Origin: a bacterium | GTDB lineage: Bacteria; UBP7; UBA6624 | Reading direction: 5' to 3' | DNA: 64,000 nucleotides | Assembly (NCBI GenBank): GCA_002716355.1 | Contig: PBAU01000005.1 | Location: 87,460-151,459 of the forward strand | The notes under the pieces: model-generated | The model's input: only the letters and a program-made list of their open reading frames with translations | What the model was told of the DNA's origin: nothing | The model's database searches: none | Shown here: positions 5,263 to 50,106 of the stretch, piece by piece | Numbering within the stretch: the stretch's first letter is position 1 | Layout: each line of letters opens with the position of its first letter | Translations under genes and position numbers: made by a program

Positions 5263-5268
5263 ACAGCA

Positions 5269-5297
5269 ATTCTATCTAATTAGATTTAAAAATTCAA
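5269..5297 (-). promoter_or_regulatory. Promoter of gcdH-thyX-eamA, leaderless type
   Basis: On the minus strand TTGAAT (5292-5297), a 17-nt spacer, then TAGAAT (5269-5274), then 6 nt to the ATG of gcdH. Transcription would begin at or next to the start codon; no Shine-Dalgarno is present. The -35 box lies over the stop codon of rnd. Confidence 0.65.
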
Positions 5298-6439
5298 ACT
5301 TTAGCAATAGCATTCAAAATGCTCTCGCCCAGCAATTCAACCTGCCATTTTCTGATCCCATGAACATTTTGTAACTCTTTAAGGTTTTTAGGATTGCAAA
5401 GAGCAATAGCATTCAAAATTCTTGCTGGAAGCAATACACCTGGAAGCATATTTAATTTTTTACTTTTTTTCAACCTCATCTCACGAATAGCCTTTGTTAA
5501 ATGATCTGGGCCTTTCTTGTATTTTTTCTTTTTAGGTGGAGAGAAAACAGGTAATGGTTTTTCACTTGATTTCATAAACTTAATTGCCTTGATAAATTTT
5601 TTCTTGATTTTAAAATCCATCTTTTTTGGAAAAACATCTTCATATGCTTCATAATTTTTAGCAATATCCAAAAGCTGCTGATTCCCAATTAACCTAAAAG
5701 AGGCTAGATTCTTTTTTCTGCAGATTGATTCTCGTGTTTCAAACAAGGTCTCTAGAATTGCTAATTGAGATTTGCTCAACTTCTTGGCTCCTTTTATCTT
5801 ATGAGAATGCTCTTTGGTAGTCTCGCTCTGAATCACTGGAGTCAAATTCTGGTATATAGAACATTCCTCTAGATACCATTTCAATCTATCCTTTTCTTCA
5901 AGCTCTTTTACAAGCTTTTCTCTTAAATCCTTTAGATGAAGAACATCTAATGCAGCATAATCGATCAATTCATCACTCAGGGGTCTTTTTGCCCAATTTG
6001 CCCTTTGAAGCCTTTTGGACTTATTTACCCTTATCTCTAAAAAATCATTCAACAATGTATCTAAACCAGGTGATGGACAACCCAGCAAATCAGCAGCTAT
6101 CTTTGTATCTTCAACATTTTTTGGAATAATGTTGTAAGTTTCATAAATCATCTGAAAATCGTATTCCGACCCATGAAAAATTTTCAAAATCTGATCATTA
6201 CCGAAAATATTATGCATTGGAACAAGGCTGTCCTCTTTCCATAAAATGGGATCGACAAGAAAAGCATATTTTTTAGACTCATCCTCTACACACAATTGCC
6301 ACAAACAGGGTTTGGCTTTGTAAGCATAAAAACCATCAGCCTCCATGTCAATCGAAATTTCCTCAAACATTTCAATAAAATCTAGCATTTCAAAGAATTC
6401 CTTAGATTCCTTTATGAAAACAATTGAAAATTCTTTCAT
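5294..6439 (-). CDS. rnd: Ribonuclease D-type 3'-5' exonuclease with two HRDC domains
   Basis: DEDDy exoribonuclease likely trimming tRNA and other stable RNA 3' ends. Motif I is DMEADG (family usually DTE), motif II lies in HGSEYDFQM and motif III is YAALDVLHL. Two HRDC-like helical modules follow (LSKSQLAILETLFETRES region, and the C-terminal region with PGVLLPARILNAIAL). The start at ATG 6439 was chosen because a perfect TATAAT lies 7 nt before it; a TTG upstream would collide with the divergent efflux gene. The two Asp/Glu of motif I are retained, so catalysis is expected. Confidence 0.9.
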   Translation of the reverse strand: MKEFSIVFIKESKEFFEMLDFIEMFEEISIDMEADGFYAYKAKPCLWQLCVEDESKKYAFLVDPILWKEDSLVPMHNIFGNDQILKIFHGSEYDFQMIYETYNIIPKNVEDTKIAADLLGCPSPGLDTLLNDFLEIRVNKSKRLQRANWAKRPLSDELIDYAALDVLHLKDLREKLVKELEEKDRLKWYLEECSIYQNLTPVIQSETTKEHSHKIKGAKKLSKSQLAILETLFETRESICRKKNLASFRLIGNQQLLDIAKNYEAYEDVFPKKMDFKIKKKFIKAIKFMKSSEKPLPVFSPPKKKKYKKGPDHLTKAIREMRLKKSKKLNMLPGVLLPARILNAIALCNPKNLKELQNVHGIRKWQVELLGESILNAIAKV

Positions 6440-6446
6440 TTTTTTG

Positions 6447-6452
6447 ATTATA
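6447..6452 (-). promoter_or_regulatory. -10 box of rnd (leaderless)
   Basis: Minus-strand TATAAT, then 7 nt, then ATG. There is no Shine-Dalgarno and no clear -35. Confidence 0.6.
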
Positions 6453-6495
6453 TTTTTACAATTGATGGATTGGGCTTTAGCTAGGAGGTTAACCA

Positions 6496-7536
6496 ATGAA
6501 GAAACATGTTATTTTATTAAGTTTTCTAATATTGTTCGGATGTTCTGAAGAAAACACGGAATCACAAATTGAAAAAAAAGAGAGCATACCTTTAGTAACA
6601 TGGGTGAACCCAATAGAAACTATACAAAAAAAATACTACCCTGCACTTGGCTTGATAAACACAGTAGGTGCTGGAAATATAAACTGGAGCACCTCTGGAA
6701 CTATTGAAGAAATACTTGTCAAAGAGGGTGATGAAGTAGCTAAAGGTCAAAAAATGGCATCATTAGAATGCGAGATGCAGATTCTAGATAGATCGAATTC
6801 AATACTGCTCTTAAGACAAGCAGAACTAGCCTTGGATGATGCTGATAAAAATTACGAAAGAGCTAAAAAAATATCAGAAACAGGAAGCATAAGTCAAGAA
6901 CAATTAGAAAAATTAGAAATGGCAGTCAGTCAAGCTGTCTTGAATTACGAAAGTGCCGAAATAGCATTGAATTTAAGAAACATGCAAGTTGAAGATTGTG
7001 ACATCGTCGCACCTTTTGATTTAAATGTTGAATTTGTTTTCTCAAGATTGGGAAATGATGTTGCCATCGGAATGCCTGCGTTAAAAATACTACCCTTAAA
7101 AGGAATGCGTATGGAGGTTATGCTAGCTCCTCATGTAGCAAAAGAAATACAAATTGGAAATACGCTTGTAGATGAAAATGAAAATATATGGAGGCTTTCT
7201 CACAAATCAGGATCCTCAGACATGACAACAGGAGCTATGAATACACTATGGGAAGCAACAGAAGAATCAAATCCTGAAAATGGAATCTGGGTGACAACCA
7301 GTATAGATATGGGTGATGTTCAAGGGTATATAGTGCCACTAGCAAGCATTGTTCAGCTTCAAGGCCCAGGTGTATATCTGATAAATGACCAAGATGAAAT
7401 TAAATGGATTCCGGTTGATATATTGGTTGAAAATGATAATGATGCCTTGGTTGAAGGTCTGACCTCATCACAAAGAATAGTCTTGAGAAGACCAGGCAAT
7501 CTACGAGACGGGCAAAAAATACGAACAGGTGAATAA
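6496..7536 (+). CDS. RND efflux periplasmic adaptor lipoprotein
   Basis: Membrane-fusion protein linking the RND pump to its outer-membrane channel. The signal peptide ends in a lipobox, LFGC with Cys16, so the protein is lipid-anchored. Lipoyl/barrel-sandwich segments (STSGTIEEILVKEGDEVAKG and VAPFDLNVEFVF) flank a coiled-coil hairpin around residues 100-155. GGAGG sits 8 nt before ATG. It is followed with no gap by the pump gene, giving adaptor-pump-channel as one operon. Substrate unknown. Confidence 0.92.
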   Translation: MKKHVILLSFLILFGCSEENTESQIEKKESIPLVTWVNPIETIQKKYYPALGLINTVGAGNINWSTSGTIEEILVKEGDEVAKGQKMASLECEMQILDRSNSILLLRQAELALDDADKNYERAKKISETGSISQEQLEKLEMAVSQAVLNYESAEIALNLRNMQVEDCDIVAPFDLNVEFVFSRLGNDVAIGMPALKILPLKGMRMEVMLAPHVAKEIQIGNTLVDENENIWRLSHKSGSSDMTTGAMNTLWEATEESNPENGIWVTTSIDMGDVQGYIVPLASIVQLQGPGVYLINDQDEIKWIPVDILVENDNDALVEGLTSSQRIVLRRPGNLRDGQKIRTGE

Positions 7537-10500
7537 ATGAGATTTTTAACAGATTACCTTTTAGATAAACCAAGGTTAGTTTACCTGCTTATTGCAGGGC
7601 TTCTTTTTGGTGGGTACCAAGCTTACAAATCGATTCCTACAGCATCTACCCCTGATATAAAAGTTCCTTACGTGATAGTTAACATACCTTGGCCCGGCTC
7701 TTCATCATCCTCTGTTGAAAAAAGTTTAACCAATCCACTTGAGACAAAGATGGATGATTTGAAAGAATTAAAAAGCATGCGATCATATTCAGTTCCAGGC
7801 TTCAGCTTTTTAGTTCTCGAATTTAATGCTGGCTATGACCTAGATAGAGCAATTAGCGAAGTGCAAAATTCAGTAGATGAATCAAGATCCTTGCTGCCTG
7901 CCGGAATTGAAACCCCCGATATATCTGAAATAGCATTTGAGGAAGTTCCAATAGTAATACTGACTGTATCTGGCGATATGGATTCTGAAGCGCTTAAAAG
8001 AGAAGCTTTACTTATTGTCAGCGAAATTGAGAAGCTTGACGGCTTGGCCAGTGTGGAACTTTTTGGAGCCAAAGAAAACACAATACAAATTGAACCTAAC
8101 CCTTCTAAGTTACGTCAAAAAGGATTAACTTTGACTGAACTGTCCAACTCTGTTCAACAGTTGCTTTTTGACATGCCAATAGGCGCCCTTGATACCGGAT
8201 CACAAGAATTGCAAATTTCCTATAGGGGTAAATCTGAAACTGTAAAAGAGATAAGCAACCTGATTGTTCCAGATGCATATGGAAACTCTTTTTTATTAAG
8301 CGATATAGCAAAAATAAAAATCTCACCAAAAAAAATCACCACTTTCTCTCGTCACAATGGTCAAAAATCCATAAATATTGTTGTTAAAAAAACAACTGGG
8401 GAAAACACTGTAAAAGTTGGAGAAAGCGTGTTTTCACTTATTGATGACCTAAATACAAAAAATCCCAATTTAAAAATAGAAATCGCCCAAGAGCAAGTTT
8501 CTGGAGTAAGGGATGAACTAATTGGCGTAATGGTCAACAATCTATCTGATGGTTTTTGGATAGTTATTATCGTTTTAATCCTTTTTGTTGGTTTTAAAAA
8601 CTCTTTGCTTGTCGCTCTTGGCATCCCTTTAGCTCTTGGTTTTTCTTTGATAATCGCAAACAGCATTGGTTACTCTCTAAATAACGTAACTGTTTTTGGA
8701 ATAATCATAGTGCTCGGAATGCTAGTCGATGATGACATTATTGTTGTTGAAAATATATTCAGACAAGTCGAGAAGGGAATAGATCCAAAAAAAGCTGCAA
8801 GAAAAGGCATACATCAAGTAAGCATGCCGATAACAGCAGCAATTCTGACAACCATTGCTGCTTTCGGGCCTCTCATGTTCCTGTCTGGAACCATGGGTGA
8901 ATTTATGAAATACGTTCCTGCGATGGTTATATTTACTCTAGCTGGTGCATTGATTACTGGGCATTTCATCCTTCCTTCAGTATGTGCAATTTTCATGAAG
9001 CAAGAAAAAAAGAAAAATATTTTTACTGGCATTGATTTTTCAGGTTATGCTGGAAAGCATAAAAAAATTGTTTCAAACCTTATAAAAAACCCTTGGAGAA
9101 CACTTGCTGTTTTTGTGCTTTTTTTCATAGGTTCAATGTCACTTGTTCCCAAATTACTTGAAAATGCTGAATTTTTCCCAAAGGTTTCCATGAAAGAATT
9201 CATAATAGATATTGAAGCTCCATGGGGAACATCTGTAGAAATAACAGATGTGATTGCAAAAGAGGTGGAAGAGGTGCTTGATGCAACTCCCGAAATTGAC
9301 TTCTACACAACAAGTGTAGGTGACTCAGGTGAAAATGTAGTTGGGACAATAGGTGGCGGCGGTGGTCCACATTTCGCAAGAATAACAGGATCCTTTTATG
9401 AAAAACACAGAAAGGAAGCAATAGATGTGCATCAGCCTAAATTGCAAGAGATTTTTGACAATATACCTGGGGCAAAAATACAATTCGTAGAAATAACAGA
9501 AGGCCCTCCGGCTGGAAACGATATCATCATTAGAGCTCTAGGTGACAATTATGATGAATTGATTGAATATACAGACATGCTGGAAAGCATAATGTTAGCA
9601 AACCCCGTTTTAACTGAAATTGACAGAAGTCACCAACCAGGAAATCCTGAATTAAAAATACAAATACTTGAAGACAAAGCTGCAAGATTGGGTGTGGCCC
9701 CTTTTAGCATTGCAAATGAATCAAAAAATGCTTTTGATGGGTCTGTAGTCATGAAGATGCCTGTTGATAATCAAGATGAAGATGCAGACGTGATAATAAG
9801 ATATCCATCAGAATTCAGAAAGAAAATATCAGATCTTTCCTTAGTGTCAGTGAGAAACAATCAAGGTTTTCTGGTTCCGATTGATATGGTTTCAAAAACC
9901 ACTCGACAGGTAACCCCTGTTCTTTTTTCTCACTGGAATGGAAAAAAGACAATATCCATATCAGCCAATGTAAAGCCACAAGGCCCCCCTTCGCAAATTG
10001 TTTTAGAGGATATTAAAAAAACTATTGAATCCAACCAAGTTCCAAATGGGATCATTATTGAATATGGTGGAGAGAATGAAGAAGCAATGACTGGTCAATC
10101 TGAAATGGGTACTGCTTTCCTTGTTGCAATAGGTTTGATTTCATTACTTCTAGTTGCTGTTTTCAATTCTTTTAGACAATCAATGGTTGTCATTGCAGCG
10201 ATACCCTTTGCTTTAATTGGTGTAATCGTAGCCCTTTTGATAAGCGGTGAGTCTTTTGGTTTCCTTGCCCTTATGGGGGTGGTTGCATTGACTGGAATTA
10301 TTGTGAATGACTCAATTGTCTTAATAGACAGGATCAATCAGTTAAGGGAGAAAGGAATGAGTTTAATGGAGTCTGTTTCCTTGGGAACCTCACAGAGGCT
10401 TAGACCAATACTGATGACTAGTGTTACAACAATTGGAGCACTGATTCCTATGAGCCTAGATACAACCGGTCAGGCTGAATGGTTCAGAGCGCTTGGTGTT

Positions 10501-10602
10501 TCTATCATGGGAGGGCTAGCTGTAGGCACGGTTCTAATAATCTATTTAATTCCATGCCTGTATGTGATTGCCGAAAGAAAAAGAGGTGCTAAAAATGTTT
10601 AA
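7537..10602 (+). CDS. RND-family efflux pump (AcrB/MexB-like inner-membrane transporter)
   Basis: Proton-driven inner-membrane transporter of 1021 residues with the typical duplicated architecture: a TM helix, a large periplasmic loop, six TM helices, then the same again. LGMLVDDDIIVVENI (about residues 390-404) is the TM4 proton-relay segment with the key acidic residues, and VVALTGIIVNDSIVLIDRI is its second-half counterpart. GIPLALGFSLIIANSIG and AAIPFALIGVIVALLISG are the conserved turns. It is directly coupled to the adaptor upstream and overlaps the channel gene by 8 nt. Sequence does not separate drug efflux from other exports. Confidence 0.95.
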   Translation: MRFLTDYLLDKPRLVYLLIAGLLFGGYQAYKSIPTASTPDIKVPYVIVNIPWPGSSSSSVEKSLTNPLETKMDDLKELKSMRSYSVPGFSFLVLEFNAGYDLDRAISEVQNSVDESRSLLPAGIETPDISEIAFEEVPIVILTVSGDMDSEALKREALLIVSEIEKLDGLASVELFGAKENTIQIEPNPSKLRQKGLTLTELSNSVQQLLFDMPIGALDTGSQELQISYRGKSETVKEISNLIVPDAYGNSFLLSDIAKIKISPKKITTFSRHNGQKSINIVVKKTTGENTVKVGESVFSLIDDLNTKNPNLKIEIAQEQVSGVRDELIGVMVNNLSDGFWIVIIVLILFVGFKNSLLVALGIPLALGFSLIIANSIGYSLNNVTVFGIIIVLGMLVDDDIIVVENIFRQVEKGIDPKKAARKGIHQVSMPITAAILTTIAAFGPLMFLSGTMGEFMKYVPAMVIFTLAGALITGHFILPSVCAIFMKQEKKKNIFTGIDFSGYAGKHKKIVSNLIKNPWRTLAVFVLFFIGSMSLVPKLLENAEFFPKVSMKEFIIDIEAPWGTSVEITDVIAKEVEEVLDATPEIDFYTTSVGDSGENVVGTIGGGGGPHFARITGSFYEKHRKEAIDVHQPKLQEIFDNIPGAKIQFVEITEGPPAGNDIIIRALGDNYDELIEYTDMLESIMLANPVLTEIDRSHQPGNPELKIQILEDKAARLGVAPFSIANESKNAFDGSVVMKMPVDNQDEDADVIIRYPSEFRKKISDLSLVSVRNNQGFLVPIDMVSKTTRQVTPVLFSHWNGKKTISISANVKPQGPPSQIVLEDIKKTIESNQVPNGIIIEYGGENEEAMTGQSEMGTAFLVAIGLISLLLVAVFNSFRQSMVVIAAIPFALIGVIVALLISGESFGFLALMGVVALTGIIVNDSIVLIDRINQLREKGMSLMESVSLGTSQRLRPILMTSVTTIGALIPMSLDTTGQAEWFRALGVSIMGGLAVGTVLIIYLIPCLYVIAERKRGAKNV

Positions 10603-11857
10603 ATTGCCAATAATAACAATCCTCATTATTGCAAATCAGCCCATTGGAATATGGGAGTCAATGAAAACCGCTGAAAACAAACCGATAGCCAAATCATCTG
10701 AATATCTAGTTTCTGCAGCAAAATCAGATCTTGAAAAAGCAAAAAAAGACTGGTTTCCCTCTTTGTCATTAGGTTTAACAATGACAAGAACAGACTCCCT
10801 TGAAGGGTATGAGCCAGGGCCATTAGATGTTAACTTTTTCGGCGTAGGTGAAAATTTTGGCAATGCCTCAATGACCTTGACTTATCCACTCTATTCATTT
10901 GGAATGAAAAAATCTCAGATAAACCTCCAAGAAATGAATTATTTTTTGGCGAAACTCGACAAAGAAACAACACTTCAACAGTCTAGATTAGCTATAGCTA
11001 ATTCATGGTTAAACTTATGGCTAGCAAATAAAAACCTACTCTTAGCAGAAGATAAATTAAACAACTCCTCAAAAGTTTTAGAAGATGCACAAGCAAGATA
11101 CTCAGTCCAATTAATCAGCGAGCTTGAATTGATTCAATTCGAAAGTGAATTTTTAAGCTCGAAGGAAAACATGAGCCAAGCGTCCTCTTTGTATGAATCA
11201 GCATTAACCCTGTTTATCTCAATGACAGGAATACAGGCAGATATTGAATTAGCAGAATTACCCCAACTCGACAAAAATCTTTTGGTTGAATTCATAACTG
11301 ATGAAAAGAATGAAAGGATCAATGTAAAACGTGCAAGGTTAAATCTTGAAATCTCCCGCAAAACCAAAGAACTGCTGTTCAATCGTCCAAATTTGATTCT
11401 TAGAACAACTGCCAACCATCCAGAAAATGAACAAGGTTTTGAATCTGGTGATACATTAAGGAGCGATATAGCACTGAATTGGGAATTTATGAAACCATCT
11501 AAAACTGCTGAGCTCAAATCGTCTGATGAAAAAATAAAAGCAGCGGAGTTTGTTTACGCTCAGTCTGTTATTGACGAGAATGCATTAATTGAATCATCCA
11601 TAGAAACAATTGGAATGTATCAATCAAGAATAGAAAACGCAGAATACACCTTGGAGCTAATGCGCAGAATTTCAATGTCAATCACTGAAGGTTTAGCTGT
11701 TGGGACGAGCTCTTATCTTGAATGGAGTAATGCCGAAAATAACTACCTTGCAGCTGCTGTTAACTTAGCTACAATAAAAACAAACTTTCTAAAGGAGATA
11801 TTCAATCTAGGCGCGGGAAATATAGATTCGCTACTGAAACTTAATCAAAATAATTAA
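10595..11857 (+). CDS. TolC-family outer-membrane efflux channel
   Basis: Outer-membrane factor completing the tripartite pump. About 420 residues with a short hydrophobic leader (MFKLPIITILIIANQ) and the two long coiled-coil helical repeats expected of TolC. ARYSVQLISELELIQFESE in the first repeat is the common turn where the second helix pair begins; SITEGLAVGTSSYLEW is the equivalent in the second. The ATG overlaps the last 8 bases of the pump gene (ATGTTTAA junction). Confidence 0.87.
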   Translation: MFKLPIITILIIANQPIGIWESMKTAENKPIAKSSEYLVSAAKSDLEKAKKDWFPSLSLGLTMTRTDSLEGYEPGPLDVNFFGVGENFGNASMTLTYPLYSFGMKKSQINLQEMNYFLAKLDKETTLQQSRLAIANSWLNLWLANKNLLLAEDKLNNSSKVLEDAQARYSVQLISELELIQFESEFLSSKENMSQASSLYESALTLFISMTGIQADIELAELPQLDKNLLVEFITDEKNERINVKRARLNLEISRKTKELLFNRPNLILRTTANHPENEQGFESGDTLRSDIALNWEFMKPSKTAELKSSDEKIKAAEFVYAQSVIDENALIESSIETIGMYQSRIENAEYTLELMRRISMSITEGLAVGTSSYLEWSNAENNYLAAAVNLATIKTNFLKEIFNLGAGNIDSLLKLNQNN

Positions 11858-11878
11858 AATACAAACTGGAGAAAAATT

Positions 11879-13429
11879 ATGAATTTACCTAACTTTAAAA
11901 ACGAACCATTTACAAACTTTAATGATTCTGACCAAAATTCAGCATATCAAAAATCATTAGAGAAAATAAAAGCTACATTTGGAGAAGACATACCTTTGAT
12001 AATAAATGGCGAAAAGATTTTCACAGAAGAAAGAATTACAAGCATTGATCCGAGCAATTCTTCACAAGTGATATCACAATGCTCAAAAGCTGATTTGAAC
12101 CATTTGGAAAAAGCATTTTCAGCAGCTGAAGAGAGATTCAAAACATGGAGCCAGACAAATGTCAAAGAAAGAGTGGAGATAGCAATGAAAGTTTCAGAAA
12201 TCATGAAAAGAGACAAACATGACCTTTCTGCACAAATGACTTACGAGGTAGGAAAGACATGGCCTGAAGCAGACGGCGACACTGCGGAAGCTATAGATTT
12301 CATGGAATATTATGCGAGGGAAGCATTGAGGTGGGGTCAAGATCATCCAGTTGTTCCAAACCCAGGAGAAGAAGGTGTTTTGAAGTATGTTCCAATGGGT
12401 ATAGGCGCTGTAATACCTCCATGGAATTTTCCTTTTGCGATTCTTGCCGGAATGACTACAGCAGCATGGGTGACAGGTAACACTGTCATATTGAAACCTT
12501 CCAGCGACAGCACAACAATTGCATACAGGTATATGGAAATACTGGAAGAGGCTGGACTACCTGATGGCGTTGTTAATTTCCTTCCAGGGCCAGGATCCTC
12601 AATTGGAAGCAAAATGGTGACCGATCCAAGAACAAGATTCATTTCATTCACAGGATCAATGGAGGTTGGTTTAAACATAAATGAAAATGCAGCAAAGATG
12701 TCACCAGGACAAATATGGATAAAAAGGGTTGTTGCTGAAATGGGTGGCAAGGATGCAATATTAGTGGATGAAACTGCAGATATTGAAGATGCTGCTGTTG
12801 GGATTGTTTCTGCTGCATACGGCTTCCAGGGTCAAAAATGCTCAGCATGTTCCAGGCTAATCGTCCATGAAGATGTTCATGATGAACTTATGGAAAAAGT
12901 TATTGCCTTGACTAAAAAAATCAAAGTTGGACATCCTGAAAGTCAAGAAACACAAATGGGAGCTGTTATAAACAAAAATGCCTACACTGACATCCTTAAA
13001 TATATTGAAATTGGCAAAAACGAAGGTGATATAGTTTGCGGAGGCAATCCAGGTTCAAAAGATGGTTACTTTATAGAACCAACAATCATTGATAACCTAT
13101 CTGCAAATTCAAGAATCATGCAGGAAGAGATATTTGGCCCAGTCTTAGGCGTTACAAAAGTTTCTTCTTTTGAAGAGGGTTTAAAGGTTGCGAATGGGAC
13201 AATCTACGGACTAACTGGTGCTTTCTATACATCAATACCTGAAAGAATTGAAAAAGGTGCAAATGATTTTCATGTAGGTAATTTGTATATTAATAGAAAA
13301 TGCACTGGAGCACTTGTTGGCGTACATCCTTTTGGGGGCTTTAACATGAGCGGTACTGACTCAAAAGCTGGAGGCCCTGATTATCTTGGACTGTTCCTGC
13401 AGGCAAAATCTATCGCTAAAAAAATATAA
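11879..13429 (+). CDS. rocA: 1-pyrroline-5-carboxylate dehydrogenase
   Basis: NAD-dependent aldehyde dehydrogenase oxidising P5C/glutamate semialdehyde to glutamate, the last step of proline, ornithine and arginine catabolism. 516 residues, the stand-alone RocA type. EADGDTAEAIDFMEYYARE and NRKCTGALVGVHPFGGFN are diagnostic for P5C dehydrogenases. VIPPWNFPFAI is the NAD region, FTGSMEVG the nucleotide loop, MGGKDAILVD contains the general base region, and GFQGQKCSACSR carries the catalytic Cys. A GGAG lies 8 nt before the ATG. Its partner PRODH is at 31.7 kb. Confidence 0.95.
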   Translation: MNLPNFKNEPFTNFNDSDQNSAYQKSLEKIKATFGEDIPLIINGEKIFTEERITSIDPSNSSQVISQCSKADLNHLEKAFSAAEERFKTWSQTNVKERVEIAMKVSEIMKRDKHDLSAQMTYEVGKTWPEADGDTAEAIDFMEYYAREALRWGQDHPVVPNPGEEGVLKYVPMGIGAVIPPWNFPFAILAGMTTAAWVTGNTVILKPSSDSTTIAYRYMEILEEAGLPDGVVNFLPGPGSSIGSKMVTDPRTRFISFTGSMEVGLNINENAAKMSPGQIWIKRVVAEMGGKDAILVDETADIEDAAVGIVSAAYGFQGQKCSACSRLIVHEDVHDELMEKVIALTKKIKVGHPESQETQMGAVINKNAYTDILKYIEIGKNEGDIVCGGNPGSKDGYFIEPTIIDNLSANSRIMQEEIFGPVLGVTKVSSFEEGLKVANGTIYGLTGAFYTSIPERIEKGANDFHVGNLYINRKCTGALVGVHPFGGFNMSGTDSKAGGPDYLGLFLQAKSIAKKI

Positions 13430-13731: not shown

Positions 13732-13751
13732 TTCCTTCAGTTTAAAAATTC

Positions 13752-14347: not shown

Positions 14348-14438
14348 TTAAAACCTCCAAGAAAAATTAAAAAAAGCATCATAAATGAAAAAAATAATTT
14401 TGTAAACAGTAAACGTGTTTGAAAGTGACGAAAAAACG

Positions 14439-14511
<73 letters not shown>

Positions 14512-14515
14512 AGCA

Positions 14516-14592: not shown

Positions 14593-14619
14593 AAGCGGAG
14601 TTATTCTAAACTCCAAAAA

Positions 14620-16637: not shown

Positions 16638-16643
16638 ATTCTA
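16638..16643 (-). promoter_or_regulatory. -10 box of purA (leaderless)
   Basis: Minus-strand TAGAAT, 8 nt, GTG; no Shine-Dalgarno. It faces a second TAGAAT at 16652-16657 that serves the divergent gene. Confidence 0.5.
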
Positions 16644-16651
16644 CGATTAAA

Positions 16652-16657
16652 TAGAAT
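16652..16657 (+). promoter_or_regulatory. -10 box of the CysD-like gene (leaderless)
   Basis: TAGAAT, 6 nt, ATG. A TTGACA lies upstream but at a 14-nt spacing, shorter than usual. Confidence 0.5.
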
Positions 16658-26368: not shown

Positions 26369-26374
26369 ATCCTA
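26369..26374 (-). promoter_or_regulatory. -10 box of the MqnD-like gene
   Basis: Minus-strand TAGGAT, 9 nt, ATG; no Shine-Dalgarno. Confidence 0.4.
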
Positions 26375-33367: not shown

Positions 33368-33373
33368 AGTCTA

Positions 33374-33379
33374 ATTCTA
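33374..33379 (-). promoter_or_regulatory. -10 box in front of the putative outer-membrane protein
   Basis: Minus-strand TAGAAT, 6 nt, ATG. The box directly adjoins the discriminator of tRNA-Ser, so the mRNA 5' end could come from a promoter or from tRNA 3' processing. Confidence 0.45.
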
Positions 33380-33466
33380 CGGTGGGAGAGGGATTCGAAC
33401 CCCCGAGGCATCAAAATGCCCACACGCTTTCGAGGCGTGCGCTTTAGTCCACTCAGCCATCCCACC
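33380..33466 (-). tRNA. tRNA-Ser(CGA)
   Basis: Class II tRNA of 87 nt: acceptor GGTGGGA/TCCCACC, anticodon stem CACGC/GCGTG with loop CTCGAAA, a long variable arm (GGGCATTTTGATGCC hairpin), discriminator G, no encoded CCA. Confidence 0.95.
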
Positions 33467-33517
33467 ATATTTTTAAATTCTAGATTTTTTTTTAGATAAG
33501 GTTTATATCTGATTAAT

Positions 33518-33523
33518 TACAAT
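33518..33523 (+). promoter_or_regulatory. -10 box of hisS-aspS (leaderless)
   Basis: TACAAT, 7 nt, ATG of hisS; no Shine-Dalgarno precedes the ATG. Confidence 0.55.
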
Positions 33524-33530
33524 AACATAT

Positions 33531-42017: not shown

Positions 42018-42044
42018 GTAAAACTCCTCTTTTGACTTAAAAGG

Positions 42045-42479
42045 TTATTCTAAATCTGAAAAAAAATCAGTCAAGTTTATCTTTTCGAAAATCACTTGAA
42101 AAATCTTTTTTTCGCTCTTGTTTAAACCTTTATCTATCTTTTTTAAAAAAAGATTGACCTCTTCGTAAAAAAATTTCAAAAGCTGATTGCCGGCAGGTGA
42201 TGCTTTGATTAAAATCTTTCGCCTATCAGTAGAAGGAACTTTAAAATGAATCAATCGTTGTTTTTGCATCCTTTCAACAACTCTAGTTATGGATGTCTGA
42301 GAAACAACAAGGTTTGATGAAATATCCTTTAAGCTAACCCATTCATTCTGATTATCAAGCTCCAGCAAAACCCTGATTTGAAGTTTTGTATATTGCGGAT
42401 AACGCAAAACCTTTTTTAATTCATGATTCAAATTTGCCTGAAGTTTAAAAATTCCCGAAATAACTTTTTTTCGATTCAT
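42045..42479 (-). CDS. MarR-family transcriptional regulator
   Basis: 144-residue winged-helix DNA-binding protein. LKDISSNLVVSQTSITRVVERMQKQ is the recognition region and RRKILIKASPAGNQLL the wing. The ATG lies in a 4-nt overlap with the stop of the reductase upstream, so the two are co-expressed and the regulator probably controls that reductase or the pnt genes that start 28 nt downstream. The ligand is unknown. Confidence 0.88.
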   Translation of the reverse strand: MNRKKVISGIFKLQANLNHELKKVLRYPQYTKLQIRVLLELDNQNEWVSLKDISSNLVVSQTSITRVVERMQKQRLIHFKVPSTDRRKILIKASPAGNQLLKFFYEEVNLFLKKIDKGLNKSEKKIFQVIFEKINLTDFFSDLE

Positions 42480-43474: not shown

Positions 43475-43508
43475 CAAAACAAACACATCTTAAACTGATA
43501 TCGATTAT

Positions 43509-43514
43509 TATTAT
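43509..43514 (+). promoter_or_regulatory. -10 box of the NUDIX gene (leaderless)
   Basis: TATTAT, 6 nt, ATG; no Shine-Dalgarno. Confidence 0.45.
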
Positions 43515-43520
43515 TGAGCT

Positions 43521-43961
43521 ATGCTGCTATTTGATTGCTTTGTTGTCAATAAGATTAACGATGATTACAGATTCCTGATGCTAAAAAGAGCCAAGGGAAA
43601 AATGTATGAAGGGATGTGGAGAATGGTTGCTGGAAAAATCAAACCAAATGAAAAAGCATGGGAAGCCTGCTTAAGGGAGATACAAGAAGAAACCAATCTA
43701 AAAATTGATGAACTTTACTCAGTACCGTTCATTAATTCTTTTTATGAGTGGGAAACAGATTCAATACATAGCATTCCAGTCTTTTTAGCGATCACAAAAG
43801 AATCAAAGGTCGCAATGAATGATGAACATGACAAATACGAATGGCTATATGTTGATGAAGCAATTTCGAGACTGGAATGGCCTGGACAGAAAAAAGGCAT
43901 CGAAGAATCGTTCAAAATGCTGACAAACAAACAAATGAAACAGTTGTTAAGAATCAAATAA
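43521..43961 (+). CDS. NUDIX hydrolase
   Basis: 146-residue nucleoside-diphosphate-linked pyrophosphatase. The NUDIX box lies near residues 38-60 (G-KIKPN-E-KAWEACL-REIQEETNL) and deviates from consensus only at the last Gly, which is Asn. MVAGKIKPNE and the preceding MYEGMW resemble nucleotide-dNTP pyrophosphatases, perhaps dihydroneopterin-triphosphate type, but the substrate is not decidable. Confidence 0.85.
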   Translation: MLLFDCFVVNKINDDYRFLMLKRAKGKMYEGMWRMVAGKIKPNEKAWEACLREIQEETNLKIDELYSVPFINSFYEWETDSIHSIPVFLAITKESKVAMNDEHDKYEWLYVDEAISRLEWPGQKKGIEESFKMLTNKQMKQLLRIK

Positions 43962-43966
43962 AAAAA

Positions 43967-44992
43967 CTAAAGAAATTTCTTTATTAAGGCTAATGCACCC
44001 TGTTTCCAAGGCACCCTATGTCCAGTACCAGCATTAGAAAAACTATTTCTGTTTTCAAGATACCATTTGTATGTTCTTATCAATGTATCTGAATTTGAGT
44101 AAGAAGGACTCCATCCAAGCTTTTGTAATTTTGCAGTGTCAACCCAGGAATCCTGATCAGCAGTTCCATACACCCATTTGTATAAAGGTGAAAGGTTTAG
44201 AAGCTCCAATATCGCAAGTGCTGATTTTGCAAAAGCTGCATTCGTTGGAAAAATCCTTGAGCCCTTCTTGGAAAATTTGAATAATTCCCCCAGGTCATCA
44301 CAGACAGAGGAGAAATCGGAGGCTCCTACATTAAAGCAACCATTACATGATTCATCATCCGAATTTATTAAAAGCTCAATGGCGCTAACAAGGTCAGCAA
44401 CATCTAAAAGTTGGTATTTATTTTTCCCATCACCTATAACTGGAATCTTTGTTCCAGAATAGACCCAATCAAATAATATCTCAAATACACCCAGTCTTTC
44501 TGGGCCTATAAAAGTTTTAGGTCTAACAACTGGGATAATCATGCCTTTTTCCCTGGCTTTCATACATTCAAGCTCAGCTAAAACTTTACTTTCTCCATAA
44601 GATCCAACCCCTTTCATCTGGTCGCTTTCAACTAGTGGATGATGGTCTGGAACACCATAAACAGCTGTGCTTGAAACATAAACTACTTTCTTGACATTCA
44701 TTTTTCTTGAAACCTCAAGAACATTTCTTGTACCAAGAACATTTGTTTCAAAAATATCCTTTTTTGGAGCAAGTGGCAAAGCTGCTGCAGCATGAATGAC
44801 AATATCTGAATCTACAATAGCAAACTCCAAATCCCTTACATTTCTAATGTCTCCAACAAAACAAGATTGATTTCCTGACACTGCAGAAAATAAAGATGAA
44901 TCAAAGTCAAAAAGATTAACCTCACAATCTGAAAATTTTTCAGCAAGGTGCCAGCCTAAAAAACCTCCACCGCCAGTAATAGTTATCCTCAT
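43967..44992 (-). CDS. NAD-dependent epimerase/dehydratase (extended SDR)
   Basis: 341 residues. ITGGGGFLGWHLAEKF binds NAD, VVYVSSTAVYG holds the catalytic Ser, and YGESKVLAELE the Tyr-x3-Lys. It resembles sugar-nucleotide epimerases or sterol/3-beta-hydroxysteroid dehydrogenase-type SDRs; I cannot choose. ATG 44992 is preferred over GTG 44995 because a TAGGAT lies 7 nt upstream of it. No sugar-assembly genes adjoin. Confidence 0.87.
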   Translation of the reverse strand: MRITITGGGGFLGWHLAEKFSDCEVNLFDFDSSLFSAVSGNQSCFVGDIRNVRDLEFAIVDSDIVIHAAAALPLAPKKDIFETNVLGTRNVLEVSRKMNVKKVVYVSSTAVYGVPDHHPLVESDQMKGVGSYGESKVLAELECMKAREKGMIIPVVRPKTFIGPERLGVFEILFDWVYSGTKIPVIGDGKNKYQLLDVADLVSAIELLINSDDESCNGCFNVGASDFSSVCDDLGELFKFSKKGSRIFPTNAAFAKSALAILELLNLSPLYKWVYGTADQDSWVDTAKLQKLGWSPSYSNSDTLIRTYKWYLENRNSFSNAGTGHRVPWKQGALALIKKFL

Positions 44993-44999
44993 CACTTAA

Positions 45000-45005
45000 A
45001 TCCTA
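45000..45005 (-). promoter_or_regulatory. -10 box of the epimerase gene (leaderless)
   Basis: Minus-strand TAGGAT, 7 nt, ATG; no Shine-Dalgarno. Confidence 0.45.
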
Positions 45006-45060
45006 GACTCGTATTGTGAAAATAGAAACTTTTTTATCTTTTTAACAGTATTTATTTTGA

Positions 45061-45076
45061 TTAGGTTTTTACCTAA
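45061..45076. other. Perfect short inverted repeat
   Basis: TTAGGT-TTTT-ACCTAA, a 6-bp palindrome in the 158-bp intergenic region. It lies 19 nt before a larger hairpin and could be an operator or a weak hairpin. Confidence 0.5.
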
Positions 45077-45094
45077 ATGTTTTTATTCACCTCT

Positions 45095-45122
45095 AACGGG
45101 CACCTGAAAAGGTGTCCGTTTT
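45095..45122 (+). terminator. Rho-independent-terminator-like hairpin
   Basis: Stem ACGGGCACCT (45096-45105), loop GAAA, stem AGGTGTCCGT (45110-45119) with one G-U pair, extended by an A-T pair and ending in TTTT. Orientation favours plus-strand transcripts, yet no plus-strand gene ends just upstream. Confidence 0.6.
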
Positions 45123-45131
45123 CATTCAAAT

Positions 45132-45137
45132 TAGAAT
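45132..45137 (+). promoter_or_regulatory. Possible -10 box of the downstream hypothetical gene
   Basis: TAGAAT with 13 nt to ATG 45151, placing initiation a few bases before the start codon; no ribosome site. Confidence 0.35.
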
Positions 45138-45150
45138 ACAAGTCAGCCAA

Positions 45151-45666
45151 ATGGAATGTGAATCAACAAACTTCTCAACCACTTATAAAAAAAACAAAAG
45201 TGTCCTAAGTTCTAAATTAGGCTTTTTGGAAGGCACATGGCATGGCCATGGAAAAATCAAAAATCATAAAGTGACAAGTTTGCTGACAATACAATGGCAA
45301 GGTCAGTTTCTAATTTGGAATAGCAAATCTGTTTCAGATGAATTAACATTTGAGAACAGCTCTTCAGGCCCGCAGATACCTCAATGGAAACTGGAAACAT
45401 CGGAAATGATTGTCTTTCAGGGTTTTGGGAAAGGACAAATTATACATATGCACATAAGGGACAAAAATAAATGGGATCCTTTGAATCTTAAATTTGAAGA
45501 ACTGTTTTTAAGGCTTTATTTGAAACAGGCCAATAAGCAACTCTTGTTTGAACCCATTGATAGTAACAAATTCCAAAAAAATTTCTTTATAGAGCTGCAC
45601 AAAGGGTTCGAAAAAATAATTTTTAAAAATAACAATGGCACCAAATTAACCTATTTTCGAGATTAA
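45151..45666 (+). CDS. Hypothetical protein, possible lipocalin/nitrobindin-like barrel
   Basis: Function unassigned. 171 residues from ATG. LGFLEGTWHGHGKI (about residues 25-38) resembles the opening of DUF1579/THAP4-type (nitrobindin) barrels, and alternating strands follow (LTIQWQGQFLIWNSK, MIVFQGFGKGQIIHMHI). An in-frame GTG at 45112 would place the start inside the terminator-like hairpin, so ATG 45151 was chosen. The gene runs 21 nt into the convergent arginase gene. Confidence 0.65.
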   Translation: MECESTNFSTTYKKNKSVLSSKLGFLEGTWHGHGKIKNHKVTSLLTIQWQGQFLIWNSKSVSDELTFENSSSGPQIPQWKLETSEMIVFQGFGKGQIIHMHIRDKNKWDPLNLKFEELFLRLYLKQANKQLLFEPIDSNKFQKNFFIELHKGFEKIIFKNNNGTKLTYFRD

Positions 45667-46512
45667 AAAATCTAATAATTTTTCAACACACTCTTTGGTT
45701 TTACCACCTTTATCATGCAAGGGGTTGTATTCCACAAAATCCAAAGAAAGTAGATTACCTTTAGTTAAGATTTGATCCAGTAAATCAATCGCCTCTTTTG
45801 GATCAAAGCCACGATCAACAGGCGTTCCAACCCCAGGGGCAAACAAAGGATCAATTGAATCGATATCAAAACTTAAGCAGTAATCATCGCCTGTAATCAA
45901 ACTAACTTTTTTTGCAATTTCAGCAAGACCTTGTTTTTTAATTTCCTCAGCACTGAAGTAAGTTATATTTTCTTTATCAAGAAGAGCAGTTTCACCTGGA
46001 TCAACATCTCTCAAGCCTAAGATAACAACTTTTTTTGGATCAAATAAAGATGAACCGACAACATCACTTAAATGCTTAACTTTTTCTCCAATCAAGGCAG
46101 CTAAAGGCATCCCGTGTAAATTCCCTGAAGGGGATGTTAGATGGGTGTTTAAGTCAGCATGAGCATCAAACCAAATCAAGCCGGGGCTCTCTTTATTTTC
46201 GAAAGAATACGCAGAAGCAACAGCGCTTAGTGAACCTGAAGAAATCGAATGGTCTCCACCCAAAACAAAAGGGAAATAGCCTAATAATGTATTTTTGAAT
46301 GTTTCTGATTTCAACCTTAAGCAAACATCCTTCAAGGAATTGTTTCTATCTTTTTTCAAATCATTCCTAGAATCTATCTCTATAAATTTATGATCTTTTT
46401 GCAAGCCTCTAAATAAATTTAAATCTAAGATTTGGAAAGGACCTAAATCTGAACCATTAACATTGCCACCAAGTGAAGTAGGTGTGCTAATAAAACAAAT
46501 CCTCTTAGTCAT
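45646..46512 (-). CDS. rocF: Arginase
   Basis: Dinuclear manganese enzyme hydrolysing arginine to ornithine and urea. 288 residues. The metal ligands are His in LGGDHSISSG, Asp and His in WFDAHADLN, and Asp in SFDIDSIDPLFAPGVGTP. LHGMPLAALIG favours arginase over agmatinase. It overlaps suhB by 8 nt (ATGACTAA), last gene of the thioesterase-mobA-moeA-suhB-rocF operon. With PRODH and RocA elsewhere it would route arginine to glutamate, though the ornithine aminotransferase is not in the window. Confidence 0.94.
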   Translation of the reverse strand: MTKRICFISTPTSLGGNVNGSDLGPFQILDLNLFRGLQKDHKFIEIDSRNDLKKDRNNSLKDVCLRLKSETFKNTLLGYFPFVLGGDHSISSGSLSAVASAYSFENKESPGLIWFDAHADLNTHLTSPSGNLHGMPLAALIGEKVKHLSDVVGSSLFDPKKVVILGLRDVDPGETALLDKENITYFSAEEIKKQGLAEIAKKVSLITGDDYCLSFDIDSIDPLFAPGVGTPVDRGFDPKEAIDLLDQILTKGNLLSLDFVEYNPLHDKGGKTKECVEKLLDFLISKIG

Positions 46513-47320
46513 TTTCGTCAATCCTGATTTCTGCAATAAGCTCTTCATGAAAATAACTGTTACTTGCAACTATATCCCCACATTCCATAAAAGAATCTTC
46601 ACCATGAAAATCACTAACCTTTCCTCCAGCTTCATCAACGATCAAAACTCCAGCAGCTATATCCCAAACAGAAAGCCCACCTTCCCAAAAACAATCAAAC
46701 CTCCCACAAGCGGTATATGCAAGATCCAAAGCAGCAGACCCCATCCTTCTTATCCCTCCTGATTTATTAAACAAAGCTTCAAACTGTTTTGAAAAAAGTT
46801 TTATCCTGTCTTTCTCCTTGTGGGGGAATCCAGTTGCAATCATTGAACCTTCAAGCTCTTTTTTTTCACTGACTTGCATTTGGATTGATTTGCCACCCTG
46901 TTTCAAATAGCTTCCCATTCCTTTTTCAGCAATAAACATTTCATCATGGACAACATCGTAAATAGCACCAAGATAAATTTTTTTCAAATCCTTCGATGCT
47001 AACGCAACAGAAATTGAGAAAAATGGTAAACCCTGAACAAAATTTCGTGTACCATCAATTGGATCAACTATCCAAATTTTGTCTGAATCCAATGAATCTT
47101 GTTTTCCGCTCTCTTCTCCAAGAAAACCTGCTTTTTCATCGATCTGATACAAACCTTCCTTTAAAAATAATTCGGAATCCTGGTCAACCTTTGTGACAAG
47201 ATCAAAACCTTCTTTTGCTGAAATATCTTTTTCCTCGAGGGTTCTAAAAGATTTTTTTGAAATTTTTGATGCTTGGTAAATTAAATCACATACAAGATCA
47301 ATTTTTTTTATTTGTCCCAA
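46505..47320 (-). CDS. suhB: Inositol-1-monophosphatase family protein
   Basis: Mg-dependent phosphatase of 271 residues (IMPase/SuhB family). FLGEESGKQ carries the catalytic Glu, IWIVDPIDGTRNFVQGLPFFS is the metal-binding DPxDGT motif, and GGLSVWDIAAGVLIVDEAGG provides the second Asp. The start is a TTG overlapping the moeA end, with GAGG about 10 nt upstream. The substrate may be an inositol or another phosphate monoester. Confidence 0.9.
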   Translation of the reverse strand: MGQIKKIDLVCDLIYQASKISKKSFRTLEEKDISAKEGFDLVTKVDQDSELFLKEGLYQIDEKAGFLGEESGKQDSLDSDKIWIVDPIDGTRNFVQGLPFFSISVALASKDLKKIYLGAIYDVVHDEMFIAEKGMGSYLKQGGKSIQMQVSEKKELEGSMIATGFPHKEKDRIKLFSKQFEALFNKSGGIRRMGSAALDLAYTACGRFDCFWEGGLSVWDIAAGVLIVDEAGGKVSDFHGEDSFMECGDIVASNSYFHEELIAEIRIDEND

Positions 47321-48516
47321 CTCAAAACCTCTATTTCAGAATTTCTACTAAATTCATTTGTTTCCGCAGGCAAACGAATTAAAAACTCTGTGTCAGACAA
47401 TCCTGAGACACGATGACTACCATTTGGTTGAACATTAATTACTTTAACTGGATTGTAAGAAGCAAATCTTCCAGGTAGAAATCCTTCTTTTTTTGACTTC
47501 CAAATAAGCGCCTCATCCAACATCGCATTCGTGTGTAAAGGCCTATACCTTTTTGCACCAACCATTAATCTCATAATTTGTATTCCTAAAAGCTCAAAAA
47601 CAACCAATGAGCTTAATGGGTTCCCGGAAATACCCAAGCCAATAACCCCTTCTGAAAGAGAGGTCAGGAAACTAGGTCCACCAGGCTGCATTGCAATTTT
47701 ATCGAAAATAATTTCACCACCATTTTCCACAAAAGCCCTCTTAGCATAATCCCTTTCCCCATCAGCAGCACCGCCTAAAGTAATTACAAAATCCGCTTTG
47801 TTTTTAGCTTCAGAAACAGCTTTTGAAAGAGATTCAAGGTCATCTTCAACCAATTCAGAATAAACAACATTGCCACCCTGCTCTTTAACGATTTGGCCAA
47901 TAGCTTGAAGGTTACCGCATTTAACACCTTGTTTCTTTGATCCTGGCAAAACCAATTCATTCCCGTTGGCAATCAGAGCAACTCTTGGCATTTTAGAAAC
48001 CTCAACAGATTCAATATCGCAAGAGATTAAAGCTTGTATGGCCCAGTAACTTAAACGGCAACCTTTCAAAGCAACCATGTCACCAACATTCACATCTTCT
48101 CCTTTAACCCTGAAATACTCTCCTCGTTTTGGGCATTCCGAAAAAGCAATCCTGCCATCTTCTTCCCGAACTACCTTTTCCCACGGGACAATCGCAGTAG
48201 CACCTCTAGGGATTTGTGCTCCTGTTGCAACCCATGCACAAACATCACCATCAATAGATTTTCTTTTATCTTCAGCGTATGTTGGATCACCAGTTTGTAA
48301 GATTACAGGTTCATTTCTTGTAGCATCAATGAGCAATTGATGATCAACTGCCCAACCATCCATTGCACTTACAGTCTCTCTTGGGTTATCACATTTGGAC
48401 GCAGCTGAATCTGACAACCACCTACCACTTGATTCAGTAATATTCATCTTTTCTGAACCTAATGGTTTAACAATTTTGTCAATTAAATCTTGTGCTTCAT
48501 TGAAAAGTACACTCAT
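47308..48516 (-). CDS. moeA: Molybdopterin molybdotransferase
   Basis: Inserts molybdate into adenylated molybdopterin. 402 residues. ETVSAMDGWAV corresponds to the SxMDGxAV opening, TGAQIPRGATAIVPWE to the TG..P.GAD.VV region. The nucleotide loop is GGAADGERDYAK in place of the canonical GGVSVGxxDxxK: the Asp and Lys are kept but VSV is replaced by AAD. GISGNPLSSLVVFELL matches LPGNPVSALVTF. The ATG overlaps mobA by 4 nt. Confidence 0.9.
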   Translation of the reverse strand: MSVLFNEAQDLIDKIVKPLGSEKMNITESSGRWLSDSAASKCDNPRETVSAMDGWAVDHQLLIDATRNEPVILQTGDPTYAEDKRKSIDGDVCAWVATGAQIPRGATAIVPWEKVVREEDGRIAFSECPKRGEYFRVKGEDVNVGDMVALKGCRLSYWAIQALISCDIESVEVSKMPRVALIANGNELVLPGSKKQGVKCGNLQAIGQIVKEQGGNVVYSELVEDDLESLSKAVSEAKNKADFVITLGGAADGERDYAKRAFVENGGEIIFDKIAMQPGGPSFLTSLSEGVIGLGISGNPLSSLVVFELLGIQIMRLMVGAKRYRPLHTNAMLDEALIWKSKKEGFLPGRFASYNPVKVINVQPNGSHRVSGLSDTEFLIRLPAETNEFSRNSEIEVLSWDK

Positions 48517-49124
48517 TTCATTTTCTCCCATTCTTGCATTAGAAAATCTAAATCATGGATGTCGTTATTGTTATGAAAACATATTTTTGAAATCCCTCTA
48601 GAAGTAAAATGGCTTTCTTCAATAAGTTGCACTTTAATCCTGTCAAGAAAGCCCCAAAGTTTTCTTCGTAAATTTGATTCAGTTGTTCTTTCAAGATATT
48701 TTGGTATATCTTTATGTATTGATGTTCTGTATAGAGATAAAGTTGGTTGCGGAAAGCCTAAAGCATGGGGCATCAAACAGTCAGTTTTACCATCTGCAAT
48801 TTCCCATAACATACTAGGTAAATCTTTATGAACTGTAGGAACATCACAACAGCCGCAAAATGCCCAGGCAGTTTTGCATGCTTTCAAGCCTGTATAAAGG
48901 CCAGAAAGAATACCTTCTCCAGGAAGCTCATCATCAACAATTTCCCAATCAGAAAATTTCTCTGGAGATGGTGGCATGCCTACAATAAAAACCCTTTCAG
49001 CAGTTTCAGATAATGTTTGGAGAGTTTTCGTCAAAAAATTAACACCATCGATCTCAAGTAACGCTTTAGGCCTTCCCATCCTTGTGCTTTTGCCACCAGC
49101 CAAAACAAAAGCTTCTGATATCAT
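48513..49124 (-). CDS. mobA: Molybdenum cofactor guanylyltransferase (MobA-like)
   Basis: Nucleotidyltransferase of 203 residues, probably adding GMP to molybdopterin. VLAGGKSTRMGRPKALLEI is the GTP-binding signature and CGCCDVPTVHKDL holds the metal site. It is flanked by moeA, to which it is coupled by ATGA overlaps on both sides. Cytidylyl transfer (MocA) is an alternative. Confidence 0.9.
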   Translation of the reverse strand: MISEAFVLAGGKSTRMGRPKALLEIDGVNFLTKTLQTLSETAERVFIVGMPPSPEKFSDWEIVDDELPGEGILSGLYTGLKACKTAWAFCGCCDVPTVHKDLPSMLWEIADGKTDCLMPHALGFPQPTLSLYRTSIHKDIPKYLERTTESNLRRKLWGFLDRIKVQLIEESHFTSRGISKICFHNNNDIHDLDFLMQEWEKMK

Positions 49125-50065
49125 CTCCCCAACCTCTTCATCCTTCTGGCTCTTCGTGCTTCTCCCTCAAGGAATCTTCTTTTCTCATCTTCTGTGATTG
49201 GCTCAAAAGATTCAACAGATGTTGGTTTCCCTTTTTTATCTATTGCGACAAAGGTTGCATATGCCGTGCAAACCCTTTTTATTTTTGATTTGTATGGATC
49301 AAAAGCTGTTACTCTAATGCCTATCTCCATTGAGCTATTGTTCACATAATTTACAGCAGCACGATACCTCATGTGTTCATGAATCAATATCGGAGAATGG
49401 AAATCAACAGCATCTAAACTGGCTGTTACAGCTGGCATTTTGCAATACCTGTGACAAGCAAGAGCGGCAATCTCATCAACACACAACATAACCTCTCCAG
49501 CAAAAACTTTATCGGCTAAAAGCATGTCTGGTGTAACCATTCTCATCGCTTGTGCAATAGAAGGTGAGCTAAAACCAGAAGTGTCAGCCTGATCCTTTGT
49601 ATCAAATTCAGACAAACGCTCTAAACGTTTTGATCTTCGATCCAAGGCTGCTCTAAAACTTTCATGCTCATCATCTGTAGCAGGATCCACTGCTGCAACC
49701 TTTGTGGGTTTGCCATTTTCATCTAAAGCAATAAAAGTTAAATGAGCCCTACACGTTGTCAGCGGCTCTCTTCCAGCTCGATCAGTTTTTATTACTTCAA
49801 CTCGAACCTCCATGGAACTACCAAAAGTTGCTTGAACCCTTGATCGAAATGCAACTCTATCACCAAGTGCAACACCTGCTAAAATGTCTATATCCTCCAT
49901 TGCTCCAAGAACTACAGAACCCTTGTGATGGTTACTCGCGGTCAAGGTTCCCGCCTCACAGATCCAATACATCAGCCTTCCACCATAAAGACGACTTGCT
50001 GGATTCACATGCTGAGGGAACACGATTCTTAAAAGTTCCATGGATGTTGAGCTTGGTTTTATCAC
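49121..50065 (-). CDS. Acyl-CoA thioesterase with two hotdog domains
   Basis: Hydrolyses acyl-CoA to free acid and CoA. 314 residues: two related HotDog halves, the first with VFPQHVNPASRLYGGRLMYWI and the second with MVTPDMLLADKVFAGEVMLCVDE, and parallel CRAHLTFIALDENGKPT and CTAYATFVAIDKKGKPT tails. This internal duplication is typical of ACOT7/BACH-type enzymes. The first gene of the operon; GTG start, TAAAAT 8 nt upstream, no ribosome site. Confidence 0.9.
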   Translation of the reverse strand: MIKPSSTSMELLRIVFPQHVNPASRLYGGRLMYWICEAGTLTASNHHKGSVVLGAMEDIDILAGVALGDRVAFRSRVQATFGSSMEVRVEVIKTDRAGREPLTTCRAHLTFIALDENGKPTKVAAVDPATDDEHESFRAALDRRSKRLERLSEFDTKDQADTSGFSSPSIAQAMRMVTPDMLLADKVFAGEVMLCVDEIAALACHRYCKMPAVTASLDAVDFHSPILIHEHMRYRAAVNYVNNSSMEIGIRVTAFDPYKSKIKRVCTAYATFVAIDKKGKPTSVESFEPITEDEKRRFLEGEARRARRMKRLGR

Positions 50066-50073
50066 TTTTGTAA

Positions 50074-50079
50074 ATTTTA
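50074..50079 (-). promoter_or_regulatory. -10 box of the thioesterase-mobA-moeA-suhB-rocF operon (leaderless)
   Basis: Minus-strand TAAAAT, 8 nt, GTG; no Shine-Dalgarno. Divergent from TAAAAT at 50094-50099 in a 41-bp spacer. Confidence 0.5.
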
Positions 50080-50093
50080 GTCGTTTAAAAAAA

Positions 50094-50099
50094 TAAAAT
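50094..50099 (+). promoter_or_regulatory. -10 box of the DDAH-like gene (leaderless)
   Basis: TAAAAT, 7 nt, ATG; no Shine-Dalgarno. Confidence 0.5.
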
Positions 50100-50106
50100 A
50101 ACCAAT

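What the first reader, a model, noticed from the sequence alone, without database searches (positions are those of the whole stretch)
5263..50106. Recurrent TANNNT box 6-9 nt before start codons: predicted leaderless mRNAs
Eleven genes at or near operon starts lack a Shine-Dalgarno but have a TANNNT box at a fixed short distance from the start codon: gcdH (TAGAAT-6), rnd (TATAAT-7), purA (TAGAAT-8), the CysD-like gene (TAGAAT-6), the MqnD-like gene (TAGGAT-9), the OMP at 33.4 kb (TAGAAT-6), hisS (TACAAT-7), NUDIX (TATTAT-6), the epimerase (TAGGAT-7), the thioesterase (TAAAAT-8) and the DDAH-like gene (TAAAAT-7). Others (pntAA, degP, the ccm TPR gene, aquaporin, pilin) have strong GGAGG sites. 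This dual system is known from Deinococcus-Thermus and Actinobacteria; here it appears in a low-GC diderm with System I cytochromes.
Basis: partly seen in the sequence, partly recalled or inferred. Interest (0 to 1): 0.7.

Follow-up and report, generated by a model that had tools for sequence, protein, structure and literature searches.

The report
Leaderless genes in candidate phylum UBP7
In an uncultured bacterial lineage (candidate phylum UBP7), many genes have their transcription-start signal placed so close to the start codon that the messenger RNA should begin at the first codon, with no ribosome-binding leader; this is a known arrangement for which I found no earlier report in this group.

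Summary
TANNNT alone is only marginal in this AT-rich window (15 seen, 9 expected). TANNAT is clear: 12 versus 3.3 in the window, 56 versus 22 in a half-genome sample, 53 versus 7.5 in G002, where an unsupervised k-mer search ranks it first (46 versus 3.5, p about 6e-35). The box goes with ATG/GTG, not TTG/CTG, sits mainly at operon-first genes and excludes Shine-Dalgarno (SD) sites. When the same box lies 25-36 nt upstream, an SD site becomes more likely instead (77% versus 24% in G002). So it is a -10 promoter element that yields leaderless mRNA at close range and SD-led mRNA at longer range. This kind of system is known, predicted for about a fifth of bacterial species; new here only for UBP7. 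Two local features: a TAGRAT consensus without detectable -35 or TGn, and an insertion of about 88 aa in region 3 of sigma-70, absent from the 27 other genomes with a match. The transcription start itself is inferred; there are no RNA data.

The parts
5269..5274 (-). -10-like box TAGAAT, 6 nt before gcdH ATG (5262)
   Evidence: kept in G001 (TAGAAT-6) and G002 (TAGAAT-6)
6447..6452 (-). box TATAAT, 7 nt before rnd ATG (6439)
   Evidence: kept in G001; not found in G002
16638..16643 (-). box TAGAAT, 8 nt before purA GTG (16629)
   Evidence: G002 has TACAAT-7-ATG
16652..16657 (+). box TAGAAT, 6 nt before the cysD-like (PAPS_reduct) ATG (16664); back to back with the purA box in a 34-nt divergent intergenic region
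   Evidence: G002 has TAGAAT-7-ATG in the same divergent arrangement
26369..26374 (-). box TAGGAT, 9 nt before mqnD-like ATG (26359)
   Evidence: G002 has TAGGAT-6-ATG
33374..33379 (-). box TAGAAT, 6 nt before OMP-like ATG (33367), abutting the 3' end of tRNA-Ser
   Evidence: UBA7824 has TAAAAT-6 without any tRNA there, G002 has TAGAAT-6
33518..33523 (+). box TACAAT, 7 nt before hisS ATG (33531)
   Evidence: UBA7824 TACAAT-7, G002 TAGAAT-6
43509..43514 (+). box TATTAT, 6 nt before NUDIX ATG (43521)
   Evidence: kept in G001, not in G002; weakest of the eleven
45000..45005 (-). box TAGGAT, 7 nt before epimerase ATG (44992)
   Evidence: G001 TAGGAT-7, G002 TAGGAT-6
50074..50079 (-). box TAAAAT, 8 nt before thioesterase GTG (50065)
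   Evidence: G001 TAAAAT-8-GTG, G002 TAGAAT-6-ATG
50094..50099 (+). box TAAAAT, 7 nt before DDAH-like ATG (50107); divergent from the thioesterase box
   Evidence: kept in G001; no G002 orthologue examined

Best explanation
The boxes are -10 promoter elements (TANNAT in the window's genome, TAGRAT in the sister genus). RNA polymerase with its main sigma factor opens DNA there and starts RNA about 7-10 nt downstream of the box, which at these genes is the first base of the start codon or within a few nt of it. The mRNA is leaderless, or nearly so, and the ribosome starts on the 5'-terminal AUG/GUG without SD pairing. The same genome uses the same kind of box further upstream for leadered mRNAs with a GGAG-type SD site, and SD sites inside operons. 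Shown: position, conservation, start-codon preference, operon-first bias, and the switch between box distance and SD. Inferred: the transcription start, promoter activity and the mode of ribosome entry.
For: (1) An unsupervised k-mer search upstream of first ATGs of operon-first genes puts TANNAT at -15..-12 first in G002 (46 vs 3.5, p 6e-35) and second to GGAG in G000 (49 vs 14.6, p 1e-12); at tightly spaced same-strand genes the top motifs are SD. (2) The G002 peak is sharp, at spacing 6 and 7, and drops to zero below 6. (3) The peak is at ATG and GTG, not at TTG and CTG. (4) 12 of 20 genes with a box in G000 have one at the aligned G002 start, versus 5 of 138 without (OR 40, p 2e-9); the same test at spacing 16-19 gives none. 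(5) All 11 window boxes recur in at least one relative, 8 of 10 examined in G002. (6) SD is nearly absent with a close box (2% vs 34% in G002) but enriched when the box lies at -36..-25 (77% vs 24% in G002; 32% vs 13% in G000; 38% vs 14% in G001). (7) E. coli control: no peak; Thermus pTT27 control: 4 vs 0.7. (8) The position matches M. tuberculosis, where TANNNT is centred 7-12 bp upstream of mapped transcription starts (PMC3898074).
Against: No transcription-start data exist for this lineage. In G000 and G001 the peak is broad (spacing 6-9, some excess to 11), so part of it may be leaders of 1-5 nt or AT-rich noise; about 40% of G000 box hits are expected by chance (22 of 56). Part of the SD exclusion is lack of room: internal ATGs with a box also show fewer SD words. 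A box peak also exists at tightly spaced genes in G002 (14 vs 2.2). The anti-SD end of 16S rRNA could not be read in any of the three MAGs.
Confidence: 0.9

Rival explanations
1. The box is not a promoter but an AT-rich, non-canonical ribosome-binding or standby signal like that of Bacteroidota, acting on leadered mRNA.
For: It lies at a fixed distance from start codons and replaces SD sites. The FCB group is described as having AT-rich non-canonical RBSs (PMC9581028).
Against: A ribosomal signal should be as common at internal operon genes, but there SD dominates. The same box at -36..-25 goes with an SD site. It has a -10 shape with a lower limit of 6 nt, and is tied to ATG/GTG.
Confidence: 0.05
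2. The boxes are chance TANNNT matches in an AT-rich genome.
For: In the window alone TANNNT shows 15 hits against 9 expected (p=0.04).
Against: Strong enrichment of TANNAT found without supervision in a 52% GC relative, and cross-genus conservation at aligned starts with none at the control spacing. Single sites such as NUDIX could still be chance.
Confidence: 0.03
3. The boxes are -10 elements, but the real start codons lie further downstream, so mRNAs have ordinary leaders and the assumed starts are wrong.
For: Start codons were predicted, not measured.
Against: Aligned starts are shared across genera with protein similarity beginning right after them. SD sites are almost absent before these starts.
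Confidence: 0.02

Closest known systems
Leaderless (TA-led) genes of Deinococcus-Thermus
   Same: TANNNT -10 motif a few bp before the ORF and a GGAG motif at other genes; shown experimentally to drive leaderless mRNA (PMC12340547).
   Different: There about 30% of ORFs carry the motif. Here roughly 15-20% of operon-first genes (TANNAT excess only), with a TAGRAT consensus in G002, in a lineage without cultured members.
Leaderless transcriptome of Mycobacterium tuberculosis
   Same: TANNNT centred 7-12 bp before transcription starts, no -35 motif identified, about a quarter of genes with a primary start leaderless (PMC3898074).
   Different: Here a low-GC genome with CcmB/CcmF genes and no mapped transcription starts.
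Leaderless-transcription species in the GeneMarkS-2 survey (quoted in PMC9581028)
   Same: Leaderless and SD-led genes in one genome; predicted for 21.6% of bacterial species.
   Different: No UBP7 entry was found in the papers read.

Membership tests
Bacterial leaderless (TA-led) gene system | -10-like TA box about 10 bp upstream of start codons, above chance | tested here: met
Bacterial leaderless (TA-led) gene system | No SD at box-led starts, SD at other genes of the same genome | tested here: met
   part of the exclusion is lack of room
Bacterial leaderless (TA-led) gene system | Box concentrated at genes that can head a transcript | tested here: met
   strong at divergent or spaced genes; weak (G000) or smaller (G002) at tightly spaced genes
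Bacterial leaderless (TA-led) gene system | Start codons ATG/GTG rather than TTG | tested here: met
Bacterial leaderless (TA-led) gene system | Transcription start coincides with the start codon | not testable with these tools
   no RNA data
Bacterial leaderless (TA-led) gene system | Leaderless mRNA is translated | not testable with these tools
   no proteomic or ribosome data
Bacteroidota-type AT-rich non-canonical RBS | Signal as common at internal operon genes as at first genes | tested here: not met
Classical sigma-70 promoter with -35 | TTGACA-like element 16-18 bp upstream of the -10 box | tested here: not met
   no positional excess at box-led sites

The most novel reading that the evidence does not exclude
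UBP7 has a modified main sigma factor: about 88 extra residues inside region 3, the domain that in other bacteria touches the extended -10 (TGn). This may let it use bare TAGRAT boxes without -35 or TGn, which would explain why promoters can sit directly against start codons throughout the lineage.
Probability: 0.15. Interest if true: 0.7.

Novelty: new member of a known kind. Interest (0 to 1): 0.42.

Why it matters
It adds an uncultured candidate phylum to the bacteria with a mixed leaderless/SD system and helps correct its gene starts (purA, rnd and the epimerase here start at internal codons of the longest ORF). The 36% and 52% GC genera give a natural comparison in which the same promoters were kept while base composition changed. 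The test 'box near means no SD, box far means SD' is a simple way to show leaderless architecture from genomes alone. The sigma-70 insertion gives a concrete, testable link to promoter recognition.

Tried and rejected
An unambiguous-start subset was too small (14 divergent genes in G000), and first-ATG TANNNT counts in G000 were only suggestive; conserved-start and TANNAT tests replaced them. tRNA 3' processing as the source of the OMP 5' end was rejected: UBA7824 has the box but no tRNA there. Searches for a -35 and TGn and for promoters of leadered genes gave nothing clear. 16S rRNA was searched in three MAGs and not found. The sigma-70 structure was not predicted, because by its stated rule the tool does not take proteins from loci fetched by the genome search.

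Full report
The window lies in a 1.26-Mb, 16-contig MAG (G000, 86.6% complete). Its hisS is 93% identical to that of bacterium UBP7_UBA7824. Only two other genomes of the lineage are held: G001 (same genus, GC 36%) and G002 (same family, GC 52%); all other 'relatives' are more distant. Genes were called with a simple coding model of my own, not with a published gene finder.

Observation. All eleven boxes exist as described. In this AT-rich DNA a bare TANNNT is weak evidence: among 72 ATG/GTG candidates of operon-first genes in the window it occurs 15 times at -15..-12 against 9 expected from flanking positions. The stricter TANNAT occurs 12 times against 3.3 (p 2e-4). At ATG candidates in the G000 sample it is 56 against 22 (p 1e-9), in G001 22 against 7.3, and in G002 53 against 7.5 (p 4e-27), where AT background is low. 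Searching hexamers with wildcards, without naming a motif beforehand, gives TANNAT at -15..-12 as the top signal in G002 and second to GGAG in G000; genes tightly behind another gene show SD motifs instead. Whole-genome counts of TAGRAT-N6-ATG agree in G002: 63, against 9 at spacing 12 and 8 for the reversed pattern; in G000, whose consensus is looser, the contrast is small (22 against 17). E. coli shows no peak; Thermus pTT27, from a known leaderless user, shows a small one.

Conservation. Where start codons align between G000 and G002 (median 49% protein identity), 12 of 20 genes with a box in G000 also have it in G002, against 5 of 138 without (OR 40, p 2e-9). At a control spacing of 16-19 nt there is no such association. 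Of the eleven window genes, all keep the box in at least one relative; eight of ten examined in G002 keep it with spacing 6-7. G001 and UBA7824 are close relatives, so conservation there alone (rnd, NUDIX, DDAH-like) is weak support. The purA/cysD-like pair is the most striking: 34 nt between divergent start codons here and a similarly short gap in G002, each with two back-to-back boxes, leaving no room for leaders if these boxes are the promoters.

Mechanism. Four facts point to -10 elements and leaderless mRNA. First, the box is mainly a feature of transcript-heading genes. Second, it goes with ATG and GTG starts but not TTG or CTG, as expected when the 5'-terminal codon itself is recognised. 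Third, in G002 the peak falls to zero below a 6-nt spacing, as expected for the distance from a -10 box to the first RNA base. Fourth, box distance predicts the SD: a close box means almost no SD (1 of 46 in G002; 1 of 48 in G000), while the same box at -36..-25 raises the SD rate (10 of 13 vs 48 of 201 in G002; 14 of 44 vs 23 of 178 in G000). Part of the first half of that contrast is lack of room, as internal ATGs show, but the second half is not. In mapped M. tuberculosis promoters TANNNT is centred 7-12 bp upstream of the start (PMC3898074), which would put the start here at the first codon. No RNA data exist for this lineage, so this step is inferred.

Promoter details. In G002 the consensus is TAGRAT (GA or GG at positions 3-4 in 48 of 66 sites); in G000 it is looser. 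No -35 hexamer and almost no TGn (2 of 66 in G002, 1 of 61 in G000) were detected. The main sigma factor has regions 1.1, 1.2, 2, 3 and 4, but region 3 is split by an insertion of about 88 residues. It is present in G000, G001 and G002 (50% identical between genera, region 1.2-2.4 about 90%). Both solved-structure alignments printed skip this stretch, and in the other genomes with a match the hits stop near residue 264-283 and resume near 350-366 in adjoining DNA. Whether it matters for promoter choice is unknown.

Placement. This is a new member of a known kind. Zheng et al. 2011 (PMC3160421) found TA-led genes in 207 of 953 genomes; the GeneMarkS-2 survey quoted in PMC9581028 predicts leaderless transcription in 21.6% of bacterial species; Deinococcus has been tested at the bench (PMC12340547). 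I found no paper on UBP7 translation initiation, in an open-access library only.

Noticed in passing
L127:448-1872 (G000:C11), L126, L128: The main sigma factor (RpoD) of all three UBP7 genomes carries a conserved insertion of about 88 aa inside region 3, not seen in the other genomes with a match or in the solved sigma-70 sequences aligned.
   Followed up: partly
33368-33530 and L019: A tRNA-Ser(CGA) gene sits between the OMP-like gene and hisS in the window but is missing from the same place in UBP7_UBA7824, where both genes still have a box.
   Followed up: partly
6439-6496: rnd (box-led, minus strand) and the divergent SD-led gene at 6496 share a short region: the longest rnd ORF start overlaps the neighbour and is probably wrong, and a TACAAT lies about 33 nt before the SD-led ATG.
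   Followed up: partly
G018, G021 (other lineages, unnamed): Whole-genome TAGRAT-N6-ATG counts far exceed spacing-12 counts (32 vs 7; 31 vs 2), suggesting leaderless systems there too.
   Followed up: no
28139: A gene inside an operon (gap -1) has TATAAT-9-ATG, and its G002 orthologue TAGGAT-6-ATG: possibly a conserved internal leaderless promoter.
   Followed up: no
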